64,000 nt of DNA from Fidelibacterota bacterium (GTDB lineage: Bacteria > Pseudomonadota > Alphaproteobacteria > Rhodospirillales > Rhodospirillaceae): the NCBI GenBank assembly GCA_002712165.1, contig PASS01000054.1:8428-72427 (forward strand), given 5' to 3'. Under the pieces are notes generated by a model. The model was given only the letters and a program-made list of their open reading frames with translations, did not search any database and was not told the origin of the DNA. Below are positions 11,420 through 20,448 of the stretch, piece by piece. Made by a program: the position numbers and the translations under genes. The stretch's first letter is position 1. Each line of letters starts with the position of its first letter.

Positions 11420-12127
11420 TCAGTATTTGCGTATCAATCCGATTAAGCTTCCTTGTACTTTGACTCGATCCGGACCGAATATACGGGTTTCGTAGGATTG
11501 GTTGGCAGGTTCCAGTGCAATTGATTCCCCCTTACGGCGGAGACGCTTCAAAGTCGCCTCCTCATTATCTACTAAGGCGACTACAATTGCCCCGTTGTCC
11601 GCAGTTTCACAGCGCTTTATAACGACTGTGTCGCCATCGATGATACCGGCATCAACCATGGAATCGCCCTCAATAGTCAATGCGTAATGTTCGCCCATAC
11701 CTAGCATAGCGCCTGGGACACCCACGTGTTCGGTTGGATCGCGCAGGGCTTCAATGGGAGTGCCGGCAGCGATTTTTCCATAGAGTGGCAAATCAACCGT
11801 GTCAGCTGTGTCATTATTTACTTTCGCTCCGGGCATGGCTCCGCTGAAATTCCCAGTAATCACGTTGGGGGCAAAACCAGCTAATTTTTCTGGGGCGTTT
11901 TCCGGTAGTTTGATGACCTCAAGCGCACGAGCGCGATGAGGAAGGCGGCGAAGAAATCCACGTTCTTCAAGCGCCATGATAAGGCGGTGGATGCCAGATT
12001 TTGATCGAAGGCTTAGCGCCTTCTTCATTTCATCGAAGGATGGCGCCACACCGTCCTTGTTCATGCTGTCATGGATATAAATGAGGAGTTGGTGTTGCTT
12101 TTTGGTCAGCATAGAAAGCCCCCGCAA
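11420..12127 (-). CDS. lexA: LexA repressor
   Basis: '[17 protein letters not shown]', Ala-Gly-type cleavage region, '[22 protein letters not shown]' S24 peptidase; probable start at about 12112. Confidence 0.95.
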
Positions 12128-12248: not shown

Positions 12249-13856
12249 TTATGAACTTTTCTTATCTTCCTGCATCATTACTGCAGCTTTTTCAGCAATC
12301 ATTATGGTGGGCGCGTTAGTATTTCCAGTTGTGGTCTGGGGCATTACCGAGGCATCGACGATTCTCAAACCGTTTATACCATGAACCTGGAGGCGAGTGT
12401 TAACCACAGCTTGCGGATCTGTACCCATTTTGCATGTACCAACCGGATGGTAGAGAGACGAACCCATTGTACGAGCAAAATGCTCAATTTCTTTGTCTGT
12501 GTTTACTTGGTTGCCTGGCTGTGTTTCAGCTACATCGTATCGAGCAAAAGTAGTGGTCCCGAAGATACGACGAGCATGCTTGAATCCAGCAATCATAACT
12601 CGAACATCATCGGGATCAGATAAGTAGTTAGGCCGGATAAGTGGATAGGTAAAAGGGTCTGGCGACTGTGCAAGTATGCTGCCGCGACTAGAGGGTCGTG
12701 TTGGGCAAATCGCAGCTAGTACGCCAGGGTGATCTTCAAATTTCAGAAATTTTCCAACCACATAACTAGCTGGTGTAAACAACAACTGTATGTCAGGACT
12801 GGCTAATCCCTCTCGGCTTTTGCAGAATACTTGAGCGCTAGTTACCCCGAAAGTTAACGCTCCACGGCCAGTTGCGAAGAATCGGATAATTTCCCTAATT
12901 CTCCGAAGACCGCGCTGCAATTCATTGATTGTGATCATATCCTTTACTCGGTGAACAATCCGACTCACATAGTGATCTGAGAGATTGGAGCCAACTCCCG
13001 TTAGATCATGGACGACCTTAATGCCCTTAGATTGTAGGTGTGATGCTGGGCCGATACCTGAAATTTGCAGTAAATGTGGAGAGCCTACCGTACCGCTTGA
13101 GATTATGACCTCGCGAGAGGCATTGATTCTTTTTGTGATGCCATTTTGGATGTAAGTGACTCCTGTGCATTTTTTCCCCTCTGTTAGAATTTGAGTAGCA
13201 TTTGCGCGGGTTTCAATTCTTAGGTTTGGACGTTTACGTGCTTTAGTCAGATAAGTGCTCGCTGTTGCTGCTCGAAACCTCCCGCGTCGATTCATTTGGG
13301 AATAGGCAACCCCATCTTGAACTCGTCCATTATAATCTTTATTCAGCAAGAACCCGGCCTCTTGTGCGGATTCTACGAACAGATGGGTAGCTGGCAAAAT
13401 AGTGTCGTAATCTACGACAGGAAGTGGCCCGCTACGACCTCGGTATGCATCGTCTCCACCACTATAGCACTCCATTTTTTTAAAAAATGGTAACACGTCG
13501 TCATAGCTCCAGCCTGTGCACCCCATCTGTGACCAGTTGTCGAAATCCGTTGCATTACCGCGTACGAAGAGCATGCCATTTATGGAGTTGCTACCACCTA
13601 TTACTTTACCCCTTGGCCATATAAGGGCGCGGTTACCAGAGGTTTCCTCGGGATGGCTGGTATAGTTCCAATTTAGCTTTGGGTGCATTATTAAATGGCC
13701 AAGGCCGGCCGGGATATGAATCATAGGGTGGTGGTCGGATGGGCCTGCTTCGAGAAGAACTACTTTGTTGGAACCGTTTTCGCTTAACCGGCTAGCTAGC
13801 ACGCAACCCGCTGACCCAGCGCCAACAATTACGTAATCGGCGGTTATGGTCGTCAT
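12249..13856 (-). CDS. GMC family FAD-dependent oxidoreductase (choline dehydrogenase/alcohol oxidase-like)
   Basis: 'DYVIVGAGSAGCVLASRLSE', 'WPRGKVIGGSNSINGMLFVRG', 'GTCKMG', 'LRIVDASVMPQTTTGNTNAPTIMIAEKAA'. Confidence 0.93.
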   Translation of the reverse strand: MTTITADYVIVGAGSAGCVLASRLSENGSNKVVLLEAGPSDHHPMIHIPAGLGHLIMHPKLNWNYTSHPEETSGNRALIWPRGKVIGGSNSINGMLFVRGNATDFDNWSQMGCTGWSYDDVLPFFKKMECYSGGDDAYRGRSGPLPVVDYDTILPATHLFVESAQEAGFLLNKDYNGRVQDGVAYSQMNRRGRFRAATASTYLTKARKRPNLRIETRANATQILTEGKKCTGVTYIQNGITKRINASREVIISSGTVGSPHLLQISGIGPASHLQSKGIKVVHDLTGVGSNLSDHYVSRIVHRVKDMITINELQRGLRRIREIIRFFATGRGALTFGVTSAQVFCKSREGLASPDIQLLFTPASYVVGKFLKFEDHPGVLAAICPTRPSSRGSILAQSPDPFTYPLIRPNYLSDPDDVRVMIAGFKHARRIFGTTTFARYDVAETQPGNQVNTDKEIEHFARTMGSSLYHPVGTCKMGTDPQAVVNTRLQVHGINGLRIVDASVMPQTTTGNTNAPTIMIAEKAAVMMQEDKKSS

Positions 13857-14018: not shown

Positions 14019-15434
14019 TTACGGGGGGGCGACACGCCAATGCAATGGAAACTTACCATTAGTGCTGCCATCGATTGGTTGTTCATAATGTAAAACTGGG
14101 TCGTAAATCTCGGTGCTTCCCAGATTTTTGATTTCACCAGCATAAGAATAAAGGGCGTAGCCAAAATAAGCCCATTGTTTGTCACCATCATCGCGGTTGT
14201 ACAATGTCCAGTACCCGTTAGGCTTTGCATTAGCGGATGCTATCAAAGGCCTCCAGGTTTTTTCGCAGTCCGTATTGCAACCGTTTATACCAATCCGCTG
14301 ACCAATAGTGTCCTTCCCGCGATCACCGCGCAGCGCCCCATCTGAACCGCCACTAGAGCTTTCACGAACATACAAAATAGTCCCGCCTTTTAATGTCAAA
14401 AGACCGCCGTAGATTTGGTTTTTTGCAATTTGGATGTTCTCGGGCATAAAATAGCGAAGGGCATAGACAAGCTTAAATCTCGGGTCCACATCTTTACCGC
14501 TGCTATCACCATAATCATTATCGCCTTTATAGGTGTACAATGAGTGGCCTTGAAAAGCCCACTGATAGATACCATCAGGTCGCGCAATAACGCTAAATTC
14601 ACCCACTGGTAAAGCCAATTGAGATGACTCGAAAGGTGTCCAATTATTGAGTATCGACGGCTCTTCACTTTCTCCACTGAAAGTGTAAAGAGGTAGCCCG
14701 ATGTCGTTTGTAAATATTTGACCTGGTGCAGTGCGTACTTCTTGAATAATGATGCCGTTTGGAACTTTGATCCACTGTTCCGGTAAAAGTTCCACAACTT
14801 GGCGTCCGTCCACTTCGTGACCTTGCCCCTGACCAGCTCCACGTGCGGTAGCGAGAGCACGTTCGGTTCTCAGTTTTTCTTCGGCTTTTTTTACGGCATC
14901 ATCATTGCTGACATCATTGCCAGACAATTCAGCCTTTTCTTTTGCCTCTTTCACAACCTTTTCAGCTGCTTCCCTAGCTTTCTTTTTTTCTTCCTTACTA
15001 CGGTTCTCCGGTACGTAGGTATACAGTGGTTGGCCTCTAAACACCCATTGCAGTGTATCATCATCACGCATAAGGATCGACCAGTGGCCTTCAGGAATAA
15101 CTCCATCGGTTACAATGGCAGGCTTCCATGTTTCTGTGCAGGTGTTATAGCAGGTGGACGTGCCATATGAGTCTTTGTCGGACGTGTAAAGAATTTGTCT
15201 TTTGGAATCGGCGAATACTACTCTATCGCGTGGTTGATTGCCGTTCGAACCTGGAGGGTTGATGCCATATCCAATTCTAATCATGCGCAGAGTGAGTGTT
15301 TCTGGTGTAGCTGCGATGCCCTCGCTGCCGGCCTCTATAAAATTTGCAGCGTGACTATTTATTGTTCCAGCTAAGAGGGCGACACAAGCTGTAGCACCAA
15401 TATTTTTGATCATGCCCTTTACTCCAATCTGCAT
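14019..15434 (-). CDS. A1: secreted Yx(F/W/Y)xxD repeat protein (COG4315-like), three modules, CxxxC pairs in modules 1 and 3
   Basis: Signal peptide after probable Met at about 15413; repeated 'C(Y/N)xxC..TW.P......P.G.W....RDD...QW.F.G..LYTY' modules; ends 'PLHWRVAPP'. Confidence 0.78.
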   Translation of the reverse strand: MQIGVKGMIKNIGATACVALLAGTINSHAANFIEAGSEGIAATPETLTLRMIRIGYGINPPGSNGNQPRDRVVFADSKRQILYTSDKDSYGTSTCYNTCTETWKPAIVTDGVIPEGHWSILMRDDDTLQWVFRGQPLYTYVPENRSKEEKKKAREAAEKVVKEAKEKAELSGNDVSNDDAVKKAEEKLRTERALATARGAGQGQGHEVDGRQVVELLPEQWIKVPNGIIIQEVRTAPGQIFTNDIGLPLYTFSGESEEPSILNNWTPFESSQLALPVGEFSVIARPDGIYQWAFQGHSLYTYKGDNDYGDSSGKDVDPRFKLVYALRYFMPENIQIAKNQIYGGLLTLKGGTILYVRESSSGGSDGALRGDRGKDTIGQRIGINGCNTDCEKTWRPLIASANAKPNGYWTLYNRDDGDKQWAYFGYALYSYAGEIKNLGSTEIYDPVLHYEQPIDGSTNGKFPLHWRVAPP

Positions 15435-15438
15435 AAGG

Positions 15439-16536
15439 TCAATGTTCGTGAGCAGTTTGTAGAGCTGGCGGCACGATAAAAGCAGGTTCGAGCTCCACGC
15501 TGAAAGTTGCCGATATGGCTAAATTGACACCTGTTTCAGGATCGTGCTCCGCATCGGCTAATTTACGCAGAGCGTAGTACATGCCAGGCAAATCCATCGA
15601 TAGCATGGATTCATATCCCGCTCCTCCTTCTCCGACTGTAGTATAAATGGGTGCCCAGAGGTGGTATCCGGCAAGAAATCCAACCGCGGTGCCATCATCA
15701 TTAAGTTTGATCCTGAAGCGGGCATTATTCATTCGAACTTCTTGCCATGCCCAGCGGTGACCGTTGAGAGCTAATGTGAAGGATTCAGTAGTTAGCATAC
15801 CGTCCTTAATTACACCTTTAACTTCATTTTTCGTCACTGGATTATTATCTTCTTGAAAGGTTAGATCAGCTTGGGGTTCGCCTACCGCGTTAATTAGGAT
15901 TGGGCTTGTTGCCTGAAACAAACGCACATGAACTTCAGGATCGTTCTTTAAATTATCGATACCATTGATTTGAACTAGCCAGGCGGGCATCTGTTGTTGA
16001 ATAGTATTCCACTGGATACTCGGCCACGTGGGGCGTGTCCCTGGATCAGCCCGCATAACACCCATGCAGCCAAACGCACGGAACAACTGATTATCAATCC
16101 CACTCTCTCCCGTTTCGGGGTCATAAAAATCGTTATCTGACACTTTGCCATCAAGATTAAAGCCATAGGCTTGTGATCCCTCAACAGTATTGATCATAGG
16201 GTCAGGTACTGAAGTGGGGTTAGTGTATGGACTCGCAGGCTTACCATCAACTCGACCGCGCATCGCAATGTGCGCGTATACACTGTTTGGGTAGTCTGAC
16301 ATTATCTCTTCAACTTCTGCTGGAGTCTTTCCCAAATCTTCCAACATCCGTATTATATTGGTGGCCGCATCCGGTGTCGGGCCTTCTGGGCAGTCAATTT
16401 CGGTTACCTGCGCGGCAACAGCTGGATAAAACCAGCTCACGACAAATCCACGCGTTTCATCAGCCAGTACAGGCGACACTCCTATGCTTACCGAAATAGC
16501 AATGGCTGCGCTGCACGCTTTGGCGTTAATTTTCAT
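15439..16536 (-). CDS. B1: secreted protein of unknown function, paralog of B2
   Basis: Signal peptide 'MKINAKACSAAIAISVSIGVSPVLADETRGF'; long colinear similarity to 17933..19081; no family recognised. Confidence 0.75.
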   Translation of the reverse strand: MKINAKACSAAIAISVSIGVSPVLADETRGFVVSWFYPAVAAQVTEIDCPEGPTPDAATNIIRMLEDLGKTPAEVEEIMSDYPNSVYAHIAMRGRVDGKPASPYTNPTSVPDPMINTVEGSQAYGFNLDGKVSDNDFYDPETGESGIDNQLFRAFGCMGVMRADPGTRPTWPSIQWNTIQQQMPAWLVQINGIDNLKNDPEVHVRLFQATSPILINAVGEPQADLTFQEDNNPVTKNEVKGVIKDGMLTTESFTLALNGHRWAWQEVRMNNARFRIKLNDDGTAVGFLAGYHLWAPIYTTVGEGGAGYESMLSMDLPGMYYALRKLADAEHDPETGVNLAISATFSVELEPAFIVPPALQTAHEH

Positions 16537-16591
16537 AGCTTTCTCCCATGACCCTTGGACCGGTGTATGTTTCTCAAGGATATATACTGTT

Positions 16592-16633
16592 GCGTGAATT
16601 AATCTACAAAGTAGCTACACTCGACATTCACGC
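16592..16633. repeat. Nested inverted repeat in the A2-B1 intercistronic gap (GCGTGAAT...CTAC-AAA-GTAG...ATTCACGC)
   Basis: 8-bp perfect arms 16592-16599 / 16626-16633, with inner CTAC/GTAG hairpin at 16604-16614. Confidence 0.5.
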
Positions 16634-16647
16634 GCTTGTTTTGACGA

Positions 16648-17931
16648 CTACGGGGGCGCAACGCGCCAATGTAGTGGGATGCCTGTATTAGGGGTCCCAT
16701 CAGCGACTTCAAAATGGTCGACGTCATCATAAACCTCGACACTCCCCATATCCTCAATACCTTCGTAGGTATATAACGCGTAACCATAATAAGCCCATTG
16801 CTTGGCACCATCTGGCCGATCGTAAACACCCCAATAGCCTGTGGGCTTTGCATCTAAATTAGCGAGTAAAGGCTTCCAGGTCTCTTCGCATTCCGCGTCA
16901 CATGTTTTTACGCCGAGGGACTGCCCTATTCCTAGTCTTCCACGATCACCACGGTAAACAGCATCAACGCCTCCGTTACCTCTCTCACGCGCATAGAGTG
17001 TGCGACCATCGGTCGTTTCAAGCAGCCCTCCGTAAGTATGATTTTTTCTGACTTGCACTACATTTGGCATGAAGTAGCGCAAAACATAGGACAGTTGAAA
17101 ACGCTCATCAGCAGCAAACAAGCCATTAGCATCGCCATACTCTCTATCGTCACGGTAGGTGTAAAGAGGCATATCTTGGAATGCCCACTGAAAAATTCCG
17201 TCAGCCCTTTTCACGATTGTAAAATCGCCTACAGGTAGCATGGCTTGTCCAGCTTCAACCGGAATCCAGTCACTATTTGGAGTAATAGATTTCACATCAC
17301 CAGAAAAAAAGTACAGAGACCTACCACTGGTCGTTGACAATACTTGACCAGATGCAGCTCGGACCTCTTCGACAGTGATGCCCATCGGCAATGCCATCCA
17401 GGTGGAAGGATTAATTTCCATTACATAACGCCCATCCACGTCGTGCCCTTTACCGTCAGGTGTGCGGCGCGCAGATGCTTGTTCTTCGCCTTTTGGCTTT
17501 TCTAATTCCTCGGAGTATCGGTACATCGGCTTACCTTTAAAAGTCCATTGCGATGTTCCGTCATTACGCGGGATGGCTGACCAAAAGCCTACAGGCTCCG
17601 CACCGTTTGATGCTAAAAGTGGAACCCATGTTTTAATGCATTCGTCATTGCAGGAAGAAACGCCAATTGTAGAATCATGGGGAGAAGCATAAAGTACGTT
17701 ACCATCCATATCAGCAAAGACGATTCGGTCTCGGGGCTGATTGCTGTTCGAACCTGGTGGATTAATCCCACGTCCAATCCGAATAACTTTGATTATGATG
17801 CCTTCAGGACTTGCTATCGCAGCTGATTTTCCTACCGATATTGCCGGTGCTGCGTATGGTGTCGCGGTCGAAATAACTAAGGCAATAGCTGAAAGTATAA
17901 AAAATTTTGTAACTCTTGGGCACGGCTTCAT
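16648..17931 (-). CDS. A2: secreted Yx(F/W/Y)xxD repeat protein, paralog of A1
   Basis: Same three-module layout; 'RIGRGINPPGSNSNQPRDRIVFAD' matches A1 'RIGYGINPPGSNGNQPRDRVVFAD'; ends 'PLHWRVAPP'. Confidence 0.8.
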   Translation of the reverse strand: MKPCPRVTKFFILSAIALVISTATPYAAPAISVGKSAAIASPEGIIIKVIRIGRGINPPGSNSNQPRDRIVFADMDGNVLYASPHDSTIGVSSCNDECIKTWVPLLASNGAEPVGFWSAIPRNDGTSQWTFKGKPMYRYSEELEKPKGEEQASARRTPDGKGHDVDGRYVMEINPSTWMALPMGITVEEVRAASGQVLSTTSGRSLYFFSGDVKSITPNSDWIPVEAGQAMLPVGDFTIVKRADGIFQWAFQDMPLYTYRDDREYGDANGLFAADERFQLSYVLRYFMPNVVQVRKNHTYGGLLETTDGRTLYARERGNGGVDAVYRGDRGRLGIGQSLGVKTCDAECEETWKPLLANLDAKPTGYWGVYDRPDGAKQWAYYGYALYTYEGIEDMGSVEVYDDVDHFEVADGTPNTGIPLHWRVAPP

Positions 17932-17932
17932 T

Positions 17933-19081
17933 TTACTGCTCGCTTTGTGCGGTCTGCGGATTGCTACGCTGAATAAATGCCGGCACGGCCTCTATTGAAA
18001 AAGTACTTGAAATCGACAGATTTAAACCTGTTTCAGTGTCCCGGTCGGCATCAGCCAGATTCCGGAATGCGTAATACATGCCGGGAAGGTCCATAGACAG
18101 CATAGCTTCATAGCCGGCGCCACCTTCTGCCTGCGGCACATACAGGGGGGCCCACTTGTGGAAGCCACCTATAATTCCGTTCGCATTTCCGTTTTCTTCT
18201 AGCTTAAGTCGAATGCGGGCGTCCTTAAAACGCATTTCAGGCCAAGCCCAGCGATGACCATTAAGCGAAAGGTCAAAAGCTTCAGTAAGTAAAATACCAT
18301 CCTTGATAGATGCCTTTACCTCATTCGTTGTATCGGGATTACCATCTTCCTCGAACGTCATGTCAGCTTGAACTTCGCTGATAGCGTCCAAAACAACTGG
18401 GCGGGTAGCTTGAGTAACACGAACTAAAACATCGTCATCGTTTCGAGCATTATCGACACCACTTACCTCGATTAACCAAGCTCCCATTTGCGGCTGAACA
18501 GTATTCCATTGGATGCTAGGCCAGGTAGATCTAGTGCCCGGCTCAGCACGCATAATGGCTGTGCAGCCATAGGCCCGAAATAACTGATTATCGACGCCTT
18601 TTTCCCCAGATATTGGATCGACAAAATCGTCATCTGACACAATGCCATCGAGGTTGAATCCGTATCCGACATTGCTAGTCACAGTCTTAATCTTAGGATC
18701 AGGAACAGACGTAGGGTTAGTGTAAGGGCTAACTGGTTTTCCATTCAGACGCCCGCGCATTGCGATGTGGGCATACACGCTATGTGGGAAGTCAGACATG
18801 ATTTGTTCGATCTCATCAGGAGTTTTCCCTGCTTCATCCAGCATTCGCTGAATATTTCCTGCTGCGTCAGGATTTAGTCCTTCGAGGCAATCTTTCTCAG
18901 CAACTTGAGCTGCAACCGAGGGAAAGAACCAGCTGATCACAAATCCATGTGTTTCAGAGGCATAGGCGGGAGCTGACGACATAATAGCCGCGATTGAGAA
19001 GGCTGCTGCCCCAGTTAAAATGCCTAACGAATCCCGACATTGCTTCACGCCACCGGGGGCGCCAAAACTATCCACGAGCAT
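17933..19081 (-). CDS. B2: secreted protein of unknown function, paralog of B1
   Basis: 'GFVISWFFPSVAAQVAEKDC..NPDAAGNIQRMLDEAGKTPDEIEQIMSDFPHSVYAHIAMRGRLNGKPVSPYTNPTSVPDP' aligns to B1 throughout. Confidence 0.75.
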   Translation of the reverse strand: MLVDSFGAPGGVKQCRDSLGILTGAAAFSIAAIMSSAPAYASETHGFVISWFFPSVAAQVAEKDCLEGLNPDAAGNIQRMLDEAGKTPDEIEQIMSDFPHSVYAHIAMRGRLNGKPVSPYTNPTSVPDPKIKTVTSNVGYGFNLDGIVSDDDFVDPISGEKGVDNQLFRAYGCTAIMRAEPGTRSTWPSIQWNTVQPQMGAWLIEVSGVDNARNDDDVLVRVTQATRPVVLDAISEVQADMTFEEDGNPDTTNEVKASIKDGILLTEAFDLSLNGHRWAWPEMRFKDARIRLKLEENGNANGIIGGFHKWAPLYVPQAEGGAGYEAMLSMDLPGMYYAFRNLADADRDTETGLNLSISSTFSIEAVPAFIQRSNPQTAQSEQ

Positions 19082-19239: not shown

Positions 19240-20448
19240 TCATGTGAGGGGTATCACGCGCACCGGGGATCCATTACTTAACGCTTCTGCGTGGGGCGCA
19301 TGGCATATAAGGGCATTGGCCTCAGACAGCAGTTTAATCAAGGCACTGTCTTGGTTAGTCAGGCTCGTAACGGTCGGCAAACCACTTTCGCTGCGCTGCA
19401 GCACAGCGCGAATATAGTGCTCGCGATCATTATTGGCTGCTATATCGTTGCTAAGGCGGGCGGTGAGGCTCTCTGGAGCATCACCTGGTAATCCACTTAA
19501 CATTGCTATTGCAGGCCCTAGAAATATTACAGCGCAAACCATAGCTGACACTGGATTACCTGGTAGCCCAAAAAACGGCATGTTCTTTAATGTGCCGTAA
19601 AGCAAGGGCTTGCCTGGGCGCATGGCTATCTTATGAAAGTAAATTTGAAGGCCTTCCTCAATGGCCGCACGTTTGACAAGATCGTGGTCACCGACAGATA
19701 CGCCGCCACTTGATACAAGCATGTCCAACTCACCGGAGCGTTTGATTGCATCACGTAATTTGCTGAGGTTATCTGGCACAATACCGAGGTTGAATGCTTG
19801 GGCGCCTTTAGACTCTATAAAAGCGCATAAGCCTGGTCCGTTAGCAGAAAAGATTTGTCCTTCGGAGATAGTTTCACCAGGTTGCAGAATTTCATTGCCT
19901 GTCGAAAGTACTCCAATTCTGGGGCGTCTATAGACCTTGACCTCAGGTAAATTCATTGCAGCAAGTAGGCCAATATCCCTTGCATTTAACATGTGAGGAT
20001 ATTTTAGTATGGCTTCACCTTTATAAAAATCTTGTGCTCGCGCGCGAATATTTTTTCCTTTTATCAGTGGTCGGTTTATTTGCACTAAGCCGTTTTCTGC
20101 TGTTGTATTTTCTTGAATAACGACAGCATCTGCTGTTTCAGGAACTATAGCTCCCGTGAATATGCGAATACACTCTCCGGAATTCAATTTACCTTTCCAG
20201 GGCTGCCCTGCGGCAGATTCGCCCACAATATTTATTTTGGTTGGTAAACTTACTAAATCAGATGTGCGAATGGCGTAACCATCCATCGCGGCAAGGTCTG
20301 CTGGCGGGTGTGATACGCGCGCAACCGAATTCTCCGCGATCACTCGACCTAAAGCATGGCGTAATTTAATATGCTCAGCCTCGACAGGCTTGATAGTGGA
20401 GTGAACCAGGTGTCGCGCATCGGCTACGGGCAATAAGGTGTCTGCCAT
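19240..20448 (-). CDS. moeA: Molybdopterin molybdotransferase MoeA
   Basis: 'LAAMDGYAIR', 'VGVLSTGNEI'-like 'IGVLSTGNEILQPGE', 'SGGVSVGDHDLVK', 'FGLPGNPVSAMV'. Confidence 0.95.
   Translation of the reverse strand: MADTLLPVADARHLVHSTIKPVEAEHIKLRHALGRVIAENSVARVSHPPADLAAMDGYAIRTSDLVSLPTKINIVGESAAGQPWKGKLNSGECIRIFTGAIVPETADAVVIQENTTAENGLVQINRPLIKGKNIRARAQDFYKGEAILKYPHMLNARDIGLLAAMNLPEVKVYRRPRIGVLSTGNEILQPGETISEGQIFSANGPGLCAFIESKGAQAFNLGIVPDNLSKLRDAIKRSGELDMLVSSGGVSVGDHDLVKRAAIEEGLQIYFHKIAMRPGKPLLYGTLKNMPFFGLPGNPVSAMVCAVIFLGPAIAMLSGLPGDAPESLTARLSNDIAANNDREHYIRAVLQRSESGLPTVTSLTNQDSALIKLLSEANALICHAPHAEALSNGSPVRVIPLT

What the first reader, a model, noticed from the sequence alone, without database searches (positions are those of the whole stretch)
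14019..19081. Tandemly duplicated two-gene secreted cassette (B2-A2-B1-A1) of unknown function
Seen: four consecutive minus-strand genes alternate between two families. B2 and A2 are separated by 1 nt, B1 and A1 by about 4 nt, and the two pairs by about 111 bp. A1/A2 align end to end (shared 'RIG.GINPPGSN.NQPRDR.VFAD' N-terminus, three modules, identical 'PLHWRVAPP' C-terminus). B1/B2 also align end to end ('MSD.P.SVYAHIAMRGR..GKP.SPYTNPTSVPDP', '..DNQLFRA.GC', 'EGGAGYE.MLSMDLPGMYYA.R.LADA'). All four have Sec-type signal peptides. Known: the A modules resemble the poorly characterised Yx(F/W/Y)xxD secreted repeat family (COG4315-like). I recognise no family for B. Inference: A and B form an obligate exported partner system, and the pair duplicated as a unit and then diverged.
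Basis: partly seen in the sequence, partly recalled or inferred. Interest (0 to 1): 0.75.

Follow-up and report, generated by a model that had tools for sequence, protein, structure and literature searches.

The report
Duplicated half of a cytochrome cassette
Two adjacent pairs of exported proteins are real, but they are a stripped-down offshoot of a larger four-gene periplasmic cytochrome cassette that this bacterium carries about fifteen times, and whose relatives sit beside steroid-breakdown genes, which gives a first testable clue to what these uncharacterised proteins do.

Summary
In detail: four minus-strand genes (14019-19081) form two B-A pairs, 63% (B) and 45% (A) identical by BLASTP, sisters in both trees. 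B and A are not a stand-alone two-gene system. The same genome holds 22 B and 19 long A genes, mostly in about 15 cassettes B-C-D-A, where C is a PSD/PSCyt3 cytochrome (DUF1592/1588/1595/1585/1587, one CxxCH) and D is a Tat-type DUF1552 protein with a variant motif (HxxTHEE instead of HxxSHH). All 15 C and 16 D genes of the genome lie in such clusters. In 290 Alphaproteobacteria, B occurs in exactly the same five genomes as DUF1552; A is optional. Trees of B, C, D and A mirror each other. The window pairs nest among full cassettes, so C and D were lost or left behind here; the block with its GMC oxidoreductase sits between moeA and lexA, which are adjacent in a relative. A-less cassettes in three lineages lie beside steroid-type genes (KshA, HsaA, HsaC, KstD), and Sphingobium carriers degrade steroidal saponins. 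Best reading: exported accessory subunits of a periplasmic cytochrome-linked oxidation system for hydrophobic ring compounds. Chemistry and the window pair's substrate remain unproven.

The parts
17933..19081 (-). B of pair I (first in transcription order): exported protein of the new B family; AlphaFold model has a confident mixed beta fold with no PDB match
   Evidence: 86% identical to the B of related locus L051
16648..17931 (-). A of pair I: exported PF03640 repeat protein, three modules, starts 1 nt after B
   Evidence: (E 1e-25, 5 stretches); 69% identical to L051 A
16537..16647 (-). 111-nt spacer between the pairs, with a GGGAG ribosome-binding site before the second B
15439..16536 (-). 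B of pair II
14019..15434 (-). A of pair II: PF03640, carries an extra E/K-rich insert
   Evidence: (E 1e-21)
12249..13856 (-). GMC oxidoreductase, no signal peptide seen; directly follows the single B-A pair in L051 (82% identical) and a 39% identical one lies 1.2 kb from a lone B in Sphingobium TomTYG65 (L061)
19240..20448 (-). moeA, upstream border of the inserted block
   Evidence: moeA and lexA are adjacent (about 150 bp) in G557 of the same family
11420..12127 (-). lexA, downstream border of the inserted block

Best explanation
The four genes are two copies of the B and A parts of a four-gene periplasmic cassette B-C-D-A. In full cassettes C is a single-haem c-type cytochrome of the PSD/PSCyt3 kind, often with a lipobox, D is a Tat-type DUF1552 protein with a conserved HxxTHEE motif, and B and A are exported partner proteins. 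I propose that C and D form the redox core, that B (and A where present) are the substrate- or surface-facing subunits that give each cassette its specificity, and that electrons leave through periplasmic carriers (cytochrome c', HiPIP, cytochrome b561 where encoded). The cassettes oxidise hydrophobic ring compounds outside the inner membrane; one A-less subclade does so in steroid-type catabolism. In the window, C and D are missing, so the two B-A pairs would work with C-D proteins from other loci, next to a GMC oxidoreductase that handles the product. Shown: existence, architecture, linkage, tree congruence, constraint, co-occurrence. Inferred: redox role, specificity role of B and A, substrate class, the C-D sharing.
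For: Cassette architecture repeated in the genome with 15/15 PSCyt3 and 16/16 DUF1552 genes inside such clusters, each full-length C with one CxxCH, Pfam assignments. Exact co-occurrence of B and DUF1552 in 5 of 290 Alphaproteobacteria (chance of identical sets about 6e-11). Mirror trees, Mantel r 0.89-0.95 over all cassettes, 0 of 5000 permutations. B-linked D proteins carry HxxTHEE or a close variant; two B-less DUF1552 proteins in G141 have HxxSHH/HxxSHN. Redox neighbours: cytochrome c' and cytochrome b561 in L043 and Sphingobium L062, HiPIP in L043; PQQ dehydrogenase with cupredoxin in L036; molybdenum hydroxylase in L069; TonB receptors in L053, L067, L071. Steroid context: KshA, KstD-like, HsaA-, HsaD-like genes on C32, which ends in a truncated B; HsaC-, HsaA- and KshA-like genes after B-C-D-cyt c'-cyt b561 in S. 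herbicidovorans; KshA-like gene right after D in G247 (L076). TomTYG isolates and S. herbicidovorans MH act on alpha-tomatine (PMC10653915).
Against: No member of B, C, D or A has a solved structure or a tested function in the sources searched. The steroid context belongs to an A-less subclade, not to the window pairs, whose only specific neighbour is a GMC oxidoreductase. KshA_C occurs in only 2 of the 5 B-bearing genomes. A and B have no known redox cofactor motif. The GMC enzyme has no signal peptide, so it would not meet exported A or B directly. That B-A pairs borrow C and D from elsewhere is untested.
Confidence: 0.5

Rival explanations
1. The cassette is a periplasmic carbohydrate- or glycoside-oxidising system, as has been guessed for PSCyt proteins of Planctomycetes and Verrucomicrobia; B and A are glycan-binding subunits.
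For: PSCyt genes often carry carbohydrate-binding modules and neighbour sulfatases in Verrucomicrobia (PMC5615132). In Sphingobium TomTYG65 a lone B is beside a GH39 glycosidase. TonB receptors, porins and sulfatase/phosphodiesterase-like enzymes near some cassettes.
Against: No carbohydrate-binding module in C, D, B or A. Cassette neighbours are mainly steroid/aromatic ring and redox genes rather than polysaccharide loci. Saponins carry both sugar and steroid parts, so the GH39 neighbour does not decide it.
Confidence: 0.2
2. B and A form their own two-protein exported system; the C-D genes are frequent neighbours with a separate role.
For: The window, L048 and L051 have B with A and no C-D. 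A and B trees are highly congruent.
Against: B occurs repeatedly with C-D and without A and B tracks DUF1552 perfectly in 290 genomes, whereas PF03640 does not. The window pairs are nested among C-D-containing cassettes in both trees.
Confidence: 0.15
3. The window pairs are relics on the way to loss: C and D are already gone and A-B persist without a function of their own.
For: C and D are absent here; the related MAG L051 keeps only one pair.
Against: All four frames are open, ribosome-binding sites are intact, and substitutions are strongly biased to synonymous sites over a long divergence (pN 0.08-0.17 against saturated pS for pair I). The pair and its GMC neighbour are retained together in L051.
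Confidence: 0.08
4. The cassettes serve extracellular electron transfer or metal handling, not catabolism of an organic substrate.
For: One c-type haem per C, HiPIP and cytochrome b561 partners, Cys-pair motifs in A.
Against: No multihaem cytochrome or porin-cytochrome conduit seen; about 15 divergent copies with different neighbouring enzymes fit diversified substrates better; steroid-gene linkage in three lineages.
Confidence: 0.07

Closest known systems
PF03640 Lipoprotein_15 / COG4315-type secreted repeat proteins (also NCBIfam NF040526 SCO0930)
   Same: A matches PF03640 in 4-5 stretches at E 1e-21 to 1e-25; exported
   Different: A is a long three-module form of about 420-470 aa found here with B-C-D; most PF03640 proteins in other Alphaproteobacteria are 130-350 aa and lack B. 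Score for SCO0930 equivalog far below its cut-off
PSD/PSCyt3 proteins (DUF1587-DUF1595-DUF1592-DUF1588-DUF1585), 'planctomycete-specific' cytochromes
   Same: C proteins of the parent cassettes have the full domain row and one CxxCH; gene next to a DUF1552 gene, in line with the report that PSCyt3 genes usually neighbour one family of unknown genes in Verrucomicrobia (PMC5615132)
   Different: Absent from the window itself; here joined by B and A, in Alphaproteobacteria, in about 15 copies in 3 Mb
DUF1552 (PF07586, HXXSHH)
   Same: All 20 cassette D proteins tested match the Pfam model, and all 16 in this genome exceed its cut-off; twin-arginine start
   Different: The name-giving HxxSHH motif reads HxxTHEE or a close variant in the B-linked D proteins examined
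Aerobic steroid ring catabolism (KshA/KstD/HsaA/HsaC/HsaD) as in alpha-tomatine-degrading Sphingobium
   Same: Genes of this type lie next to A-less B-C-D cassettes in three lineages
   Different: No cassette protein has been assigned to that pathway; the window pairs are not in such a cluster

Membership tests
PF03640 Lipoprotein_15 | Pfam score over the curated cut-off of 24.4 bits | tested here: met
   76.4 and 88.9 bits for the two A proteins
PF03640 Lipoprotein_15 | Lipid-anchored (lipobox cysteine) | tested here: not met
   No lipobox in the first 80 aa of either window A by pattern; three of the paralogues have one. The Pfam family does not require it, so this limits the name 'lipoprotein', not the family assignment
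NF040526 SCO0930 family lipoprotein | NCBIfam cut-off 275 bits | tested here: not met
   58.5 and 79.9 bits
Four-gene B-C-D-A cassette | B and A adjacent, same strand, near-zero gap | tested here: met
   gaps of 1 and 4 nt
Four-gene B-C-D-A cassette | C (PSCyt3) and D (DUF1552) in the same cluster | tested here: not met
   No PF07586 or PF07627 match on contig C34 of the window
DUF1552 / HXXSHH (for the D gene of parent cassettes) | HxxSHH motif | tested here: not met
   HxxTHEE or close variant in the B-linked D proteins examined; HxxSHH/HxxSHN in two B-less ones
DUF1552 / HXXSHH (for the D gene of parent cassettes) | Pfam score over cut-off of 30 bits | tested here: met
   138-170 bits, 16 genes
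   B without A beside C-D in L034, L043, L062, L063, L064, L071, L072, L076
   r 0.951, n 24; within own genome r 0.968, n 17
B as a known fold | Similarity to a solved structure | tested here: not met
   Model pLDDT 87, pTM 0.81; best PDB match E 0.03, TM below 0.2 on the query; no convincing sequence match
Steroid catabolic gene cluster | Cassette linked to KshA/HsaA/HsaC-type genes | tested here: inconclusive
   True for A-less cassettes in three lineages, not for the window pairs

The most novel reading that the evidence does not exclude
The B-(C-D)-A cassettes are a previously undescribed class of modular periplasmic oxidation complexes for steroids and other terpenoid-like ring compounds: a PSCyt3 cytochrome and an HxxTHEE DUF1552 protein form a common redox core, and B and A are interchangeable specificity subunits that can be duplicated and moved on their own, as in this window.
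Probability: 0.3. Interest if true: 0.85.

Novelty: new variant of a known kind. Interest (0 to 1): 0.62.

Why it matters
[quoted passage not shown] The B family links them to a defined subset that is carried by culturable Sphingobium strains with a known phenotype on steroidal saponins. That turns a long-standing open question into a deletion and product-analysis experiment. A 3-Mb genome that devotes more than 70 genes to one cassette also suggests an unusual nutritional or symbiotic niche.

Tried and rejected
B against Pfam, NCBIfam and PDB sequences: nothing above cut-off. Foldseek of the B model: only weak beta-barrel-like matches (PknI sensor, TbpB, lipocalin, decarboxylases), not used as evidence. 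AlphaFold of A: pLDDT 75, no usable match. Literature on COG4315/Lipoprotein_15 and on DUF1592/1552 function: nothing functional. Remote links from D to another Pfam fold family: none. Idea that the pair is a recent foreign import: not supported by composition, GC 0.46-0.49 like its neighbours. Idea that the many copies are assembly duplicates: no near-identical B pairs in the tree, and several contigs carry two or more cassettes (C11, C44). Idea that pair II arose after the split from L051: rejected, since L051 groups with pair I in both trees. First two attempts at a collection search failed because the alignment was too diverse.
Full report
OBSERVATION. To avoid confusion I call the upstream pair I (B 17933-19081, A 16648-17931) and the downstream pair II (B 15439-16536, A 14019-15434). 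A is a PF03640 protein; B has no family above cut-off. Against a related locus, L051, substitutions in the pair I genes are concentrated at synonymous sites, which are saturated, while pN is 0.08 for B and 0.17 for A, so they are functional genes.

THE GENOME HOLDS MANY MORE. In the window's own assembly (3.0 Mb, 86 contigs) PF03640 gives 76 matches in about 21 genes, and a profile of the two B proteins finds 22 B genes. Fetching those places and mapping genes shows a recurrent order, B-C-D-A or C-D-A-B, on one strand with short gaps or small overlaps. C is PSD3-PSD5-PSD4-PSCyt3-PSD2 with one CxxCH. D is DUF1552 with a twin-arginine start; several C have a lipobox. All 15 PSCyt3 genes and all 16 DUF1552 genes of the genome are in these clusters. 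The window contig has neither, so the window holds B-A, B-A without C-D.

B BELONGS TO C-D; A IS OPTIONAL. In 290 Alphaproteobacteria B is in five genomes and DUF1552 above cut-off is in the same five; identical sets of five would arise by chance with probability about 6e-11 (my arithmetic). PF03640 is in 24 genomes, mostly as shorter proteins. B was found in no genome outside Alphaproteobacteria in a sample of 399 Pseudomonadota, at the limited depth of that search, and in none of 59 other genomes of the same order, including three of the same family, so it was gained and expanded here or lost widely elsewhere. Outside the genome, B-C-D is found with A (L053, L065, L066, L067, L069, L070, L075; L077 with A nearby on the other strand) and without A (Sphingobium L062, L063; Novosphingobium L064; G184 L071; G141 L072; G247 L076). 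Where D is linked to B its motif is HxxTHEE or a close variant; two DUF1552 proteins of G141 that have no B nearby read HxxSHH and HxxSHN at the aligned place. So B marks a distinct DUF1552 subfamily.

HISTORY. Trees of B, C, D and A over matched cassettes agree closely: r 0.89-0.95 between patristic distances, none of 5000 permutations as high, also within this one genome (0.89-0.97) and without the divergent clade (0.74-0.92). The cassettes therefore duplicated as units. In the B and A trees pair I and pair II are sisters, and the single pair of L051 (another alphaproteobacterial MAG) groups with pair I (98-100% SH-aLRT). L051 has B-A directly followed by the same GMC oxidoreductase (82% identical) and no second pair between. 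The duplication is thus older than the split, and L051 lost pair II (or moved it). Both window pairs nest among cassettes that contain C and D, so C-D were lost here or the pair was moved without them. The block B-A-B-A-GMC lies between moeA and lexA; in G557, of the same family, moeA and lexA are adjacent.

CONTEXT AND MECHANISM. Neighbours of full cassettes are periplasmic or redox-related: cytochrome c', HiPIP and cytochrome b561 (L043; L062 has cytochrome c' and b561), a PQQ dehydrogenase with a cupredoxin domain (L036), a molybdenum hydroxylase (L069), glyoxalase/dioxygenase-fold proteins (L071, L063), metallo-beta-lactamase-fold enzymes (L049, L053), TonB receptors (L053, L067, L071) and a porin (L031). 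Steroid-type genes appear three times beside A-less cassettes. (1) Contig C32 of this genome has KshA (207 bits), KstD-like, HsaA-like, HsaD-like, oxopentenoate hydratase, acetaldehyde dehydrogenase and aldolase genes and ends in a truncated B; its end overlaps the end of contig C8, which carries the B-C-D cassette L034, over 352 bp at 94% identity. (2) In S. herbicidovorans the order is B-C-D-cyt c'-cyt b561-SDR, then HsaC-like, HsaA-like and KshA-like genes, the last 59% identical to the C32 KshA. (3) In G247 a KshA-like gene starts about 25 bp after D (L076). L034 and the Sphingobium cassettes group together in the D tree and, for L062, in the B tree, with moderate support (87). KshA_C itself is in 15 of 290 genomes, including both genomes with many cassettes, but in only 2 of the 5 B-bearing ones. 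The tomato isolates that make up most plasmid hits to B come from a study of alpha-tomatine-degrading Sphingobium, and S. herbicidovorans MH also converts alpha-tomatine (PMC10653915).

From this I infer a periplasmic oxidation system in which C and D are the redox core and B, with or without A, tunes the substrate. In the window the pairs would act with C-D made elsewhere in the genome, next to a GMC oxidoreductase. A GMC gene, 39% identical, also lies near the lone B of TomTYG65, so B-GMC proximity recurs. The GMC enzyme has no visible signal peptide, so it probably acts on an imported product. The chemistry, and the substrate of the window pairs, are not shown.

STRUCTURE. AlphaFold gives B a confident model (pLDDT 87, pTM 0.81): an N-terminal helical part and a mixed beta domain; no solved structure resembles it convincingly. 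Across all 22 paralogues C65, C173, D145, G146, D164 and S358 (numbering of pair I B) are invariant; C65 and C173 may form a disulphide and the LDG...G-D-N stretch may bind a metal ion (inference). The A model is weaker and gave no usable match.

CAVEATS. The assembly is a draft with 7.9% estimated contamination, and the 94% overlap of two contig ends shows strain mixture or a second copy, so copy number is approximate. L054 and L055 come from a MAG labelled Marinimicrobia and may be misbinned. Signal peptides were judged by eye and pattern. Gene starts in fetched loci come from a mechanical caller and some are too long.

Noticed in passing
G000:C32 (L103, L104) and G000:C8 (L034): A steroid-type catabolic cluster (KshA, KstD-like, HsaA/HsaD-like, meta-cleavage lower pathway) ends in a truncated B gene; the contig end overlaps the B-C-D contig C8 at 94% over 352 bp, suggesting strain mixture or a second copy.
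   Followed up: partly
L042, L050, L065: Cassettes with two adjacent B genes next to C-D-A: B alone also duplicates in tandem.
   Followed up: partly
L033:4222-4641 and L037:5304-5693: Two short PF03640 proteins in the same genome, not linked to B, C or D; the common short form of the family.
   Followed up: no
L043:856-3338: B-C-D cassette without A is followed by cytochrome c', a HiPIP-like protein, a second protein of the cytochrome c' cluster and cytochrome b561, as if these take the place of A.
   Followed up: partly
L054 and L055: B (and in L054 an A) on contigs of a MAG labelled Candidatus Marinimicrobia whose other genes look alphaproteobacterial; possible misbinning or transfer.
   Followed up: no
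L048:4148-6442: 764-aa protein with no Pfam match near a B-A pair that lacks C-D.
   Followed up: no
G141:C9 and G141:C3 (L073, L074): DUF1592-DUF1552 pairs of the ordinary HxxSHH/HxxSHN type without B, in a genome that also has one B-linked HxxTHEE cassette.
   Followed up: partly
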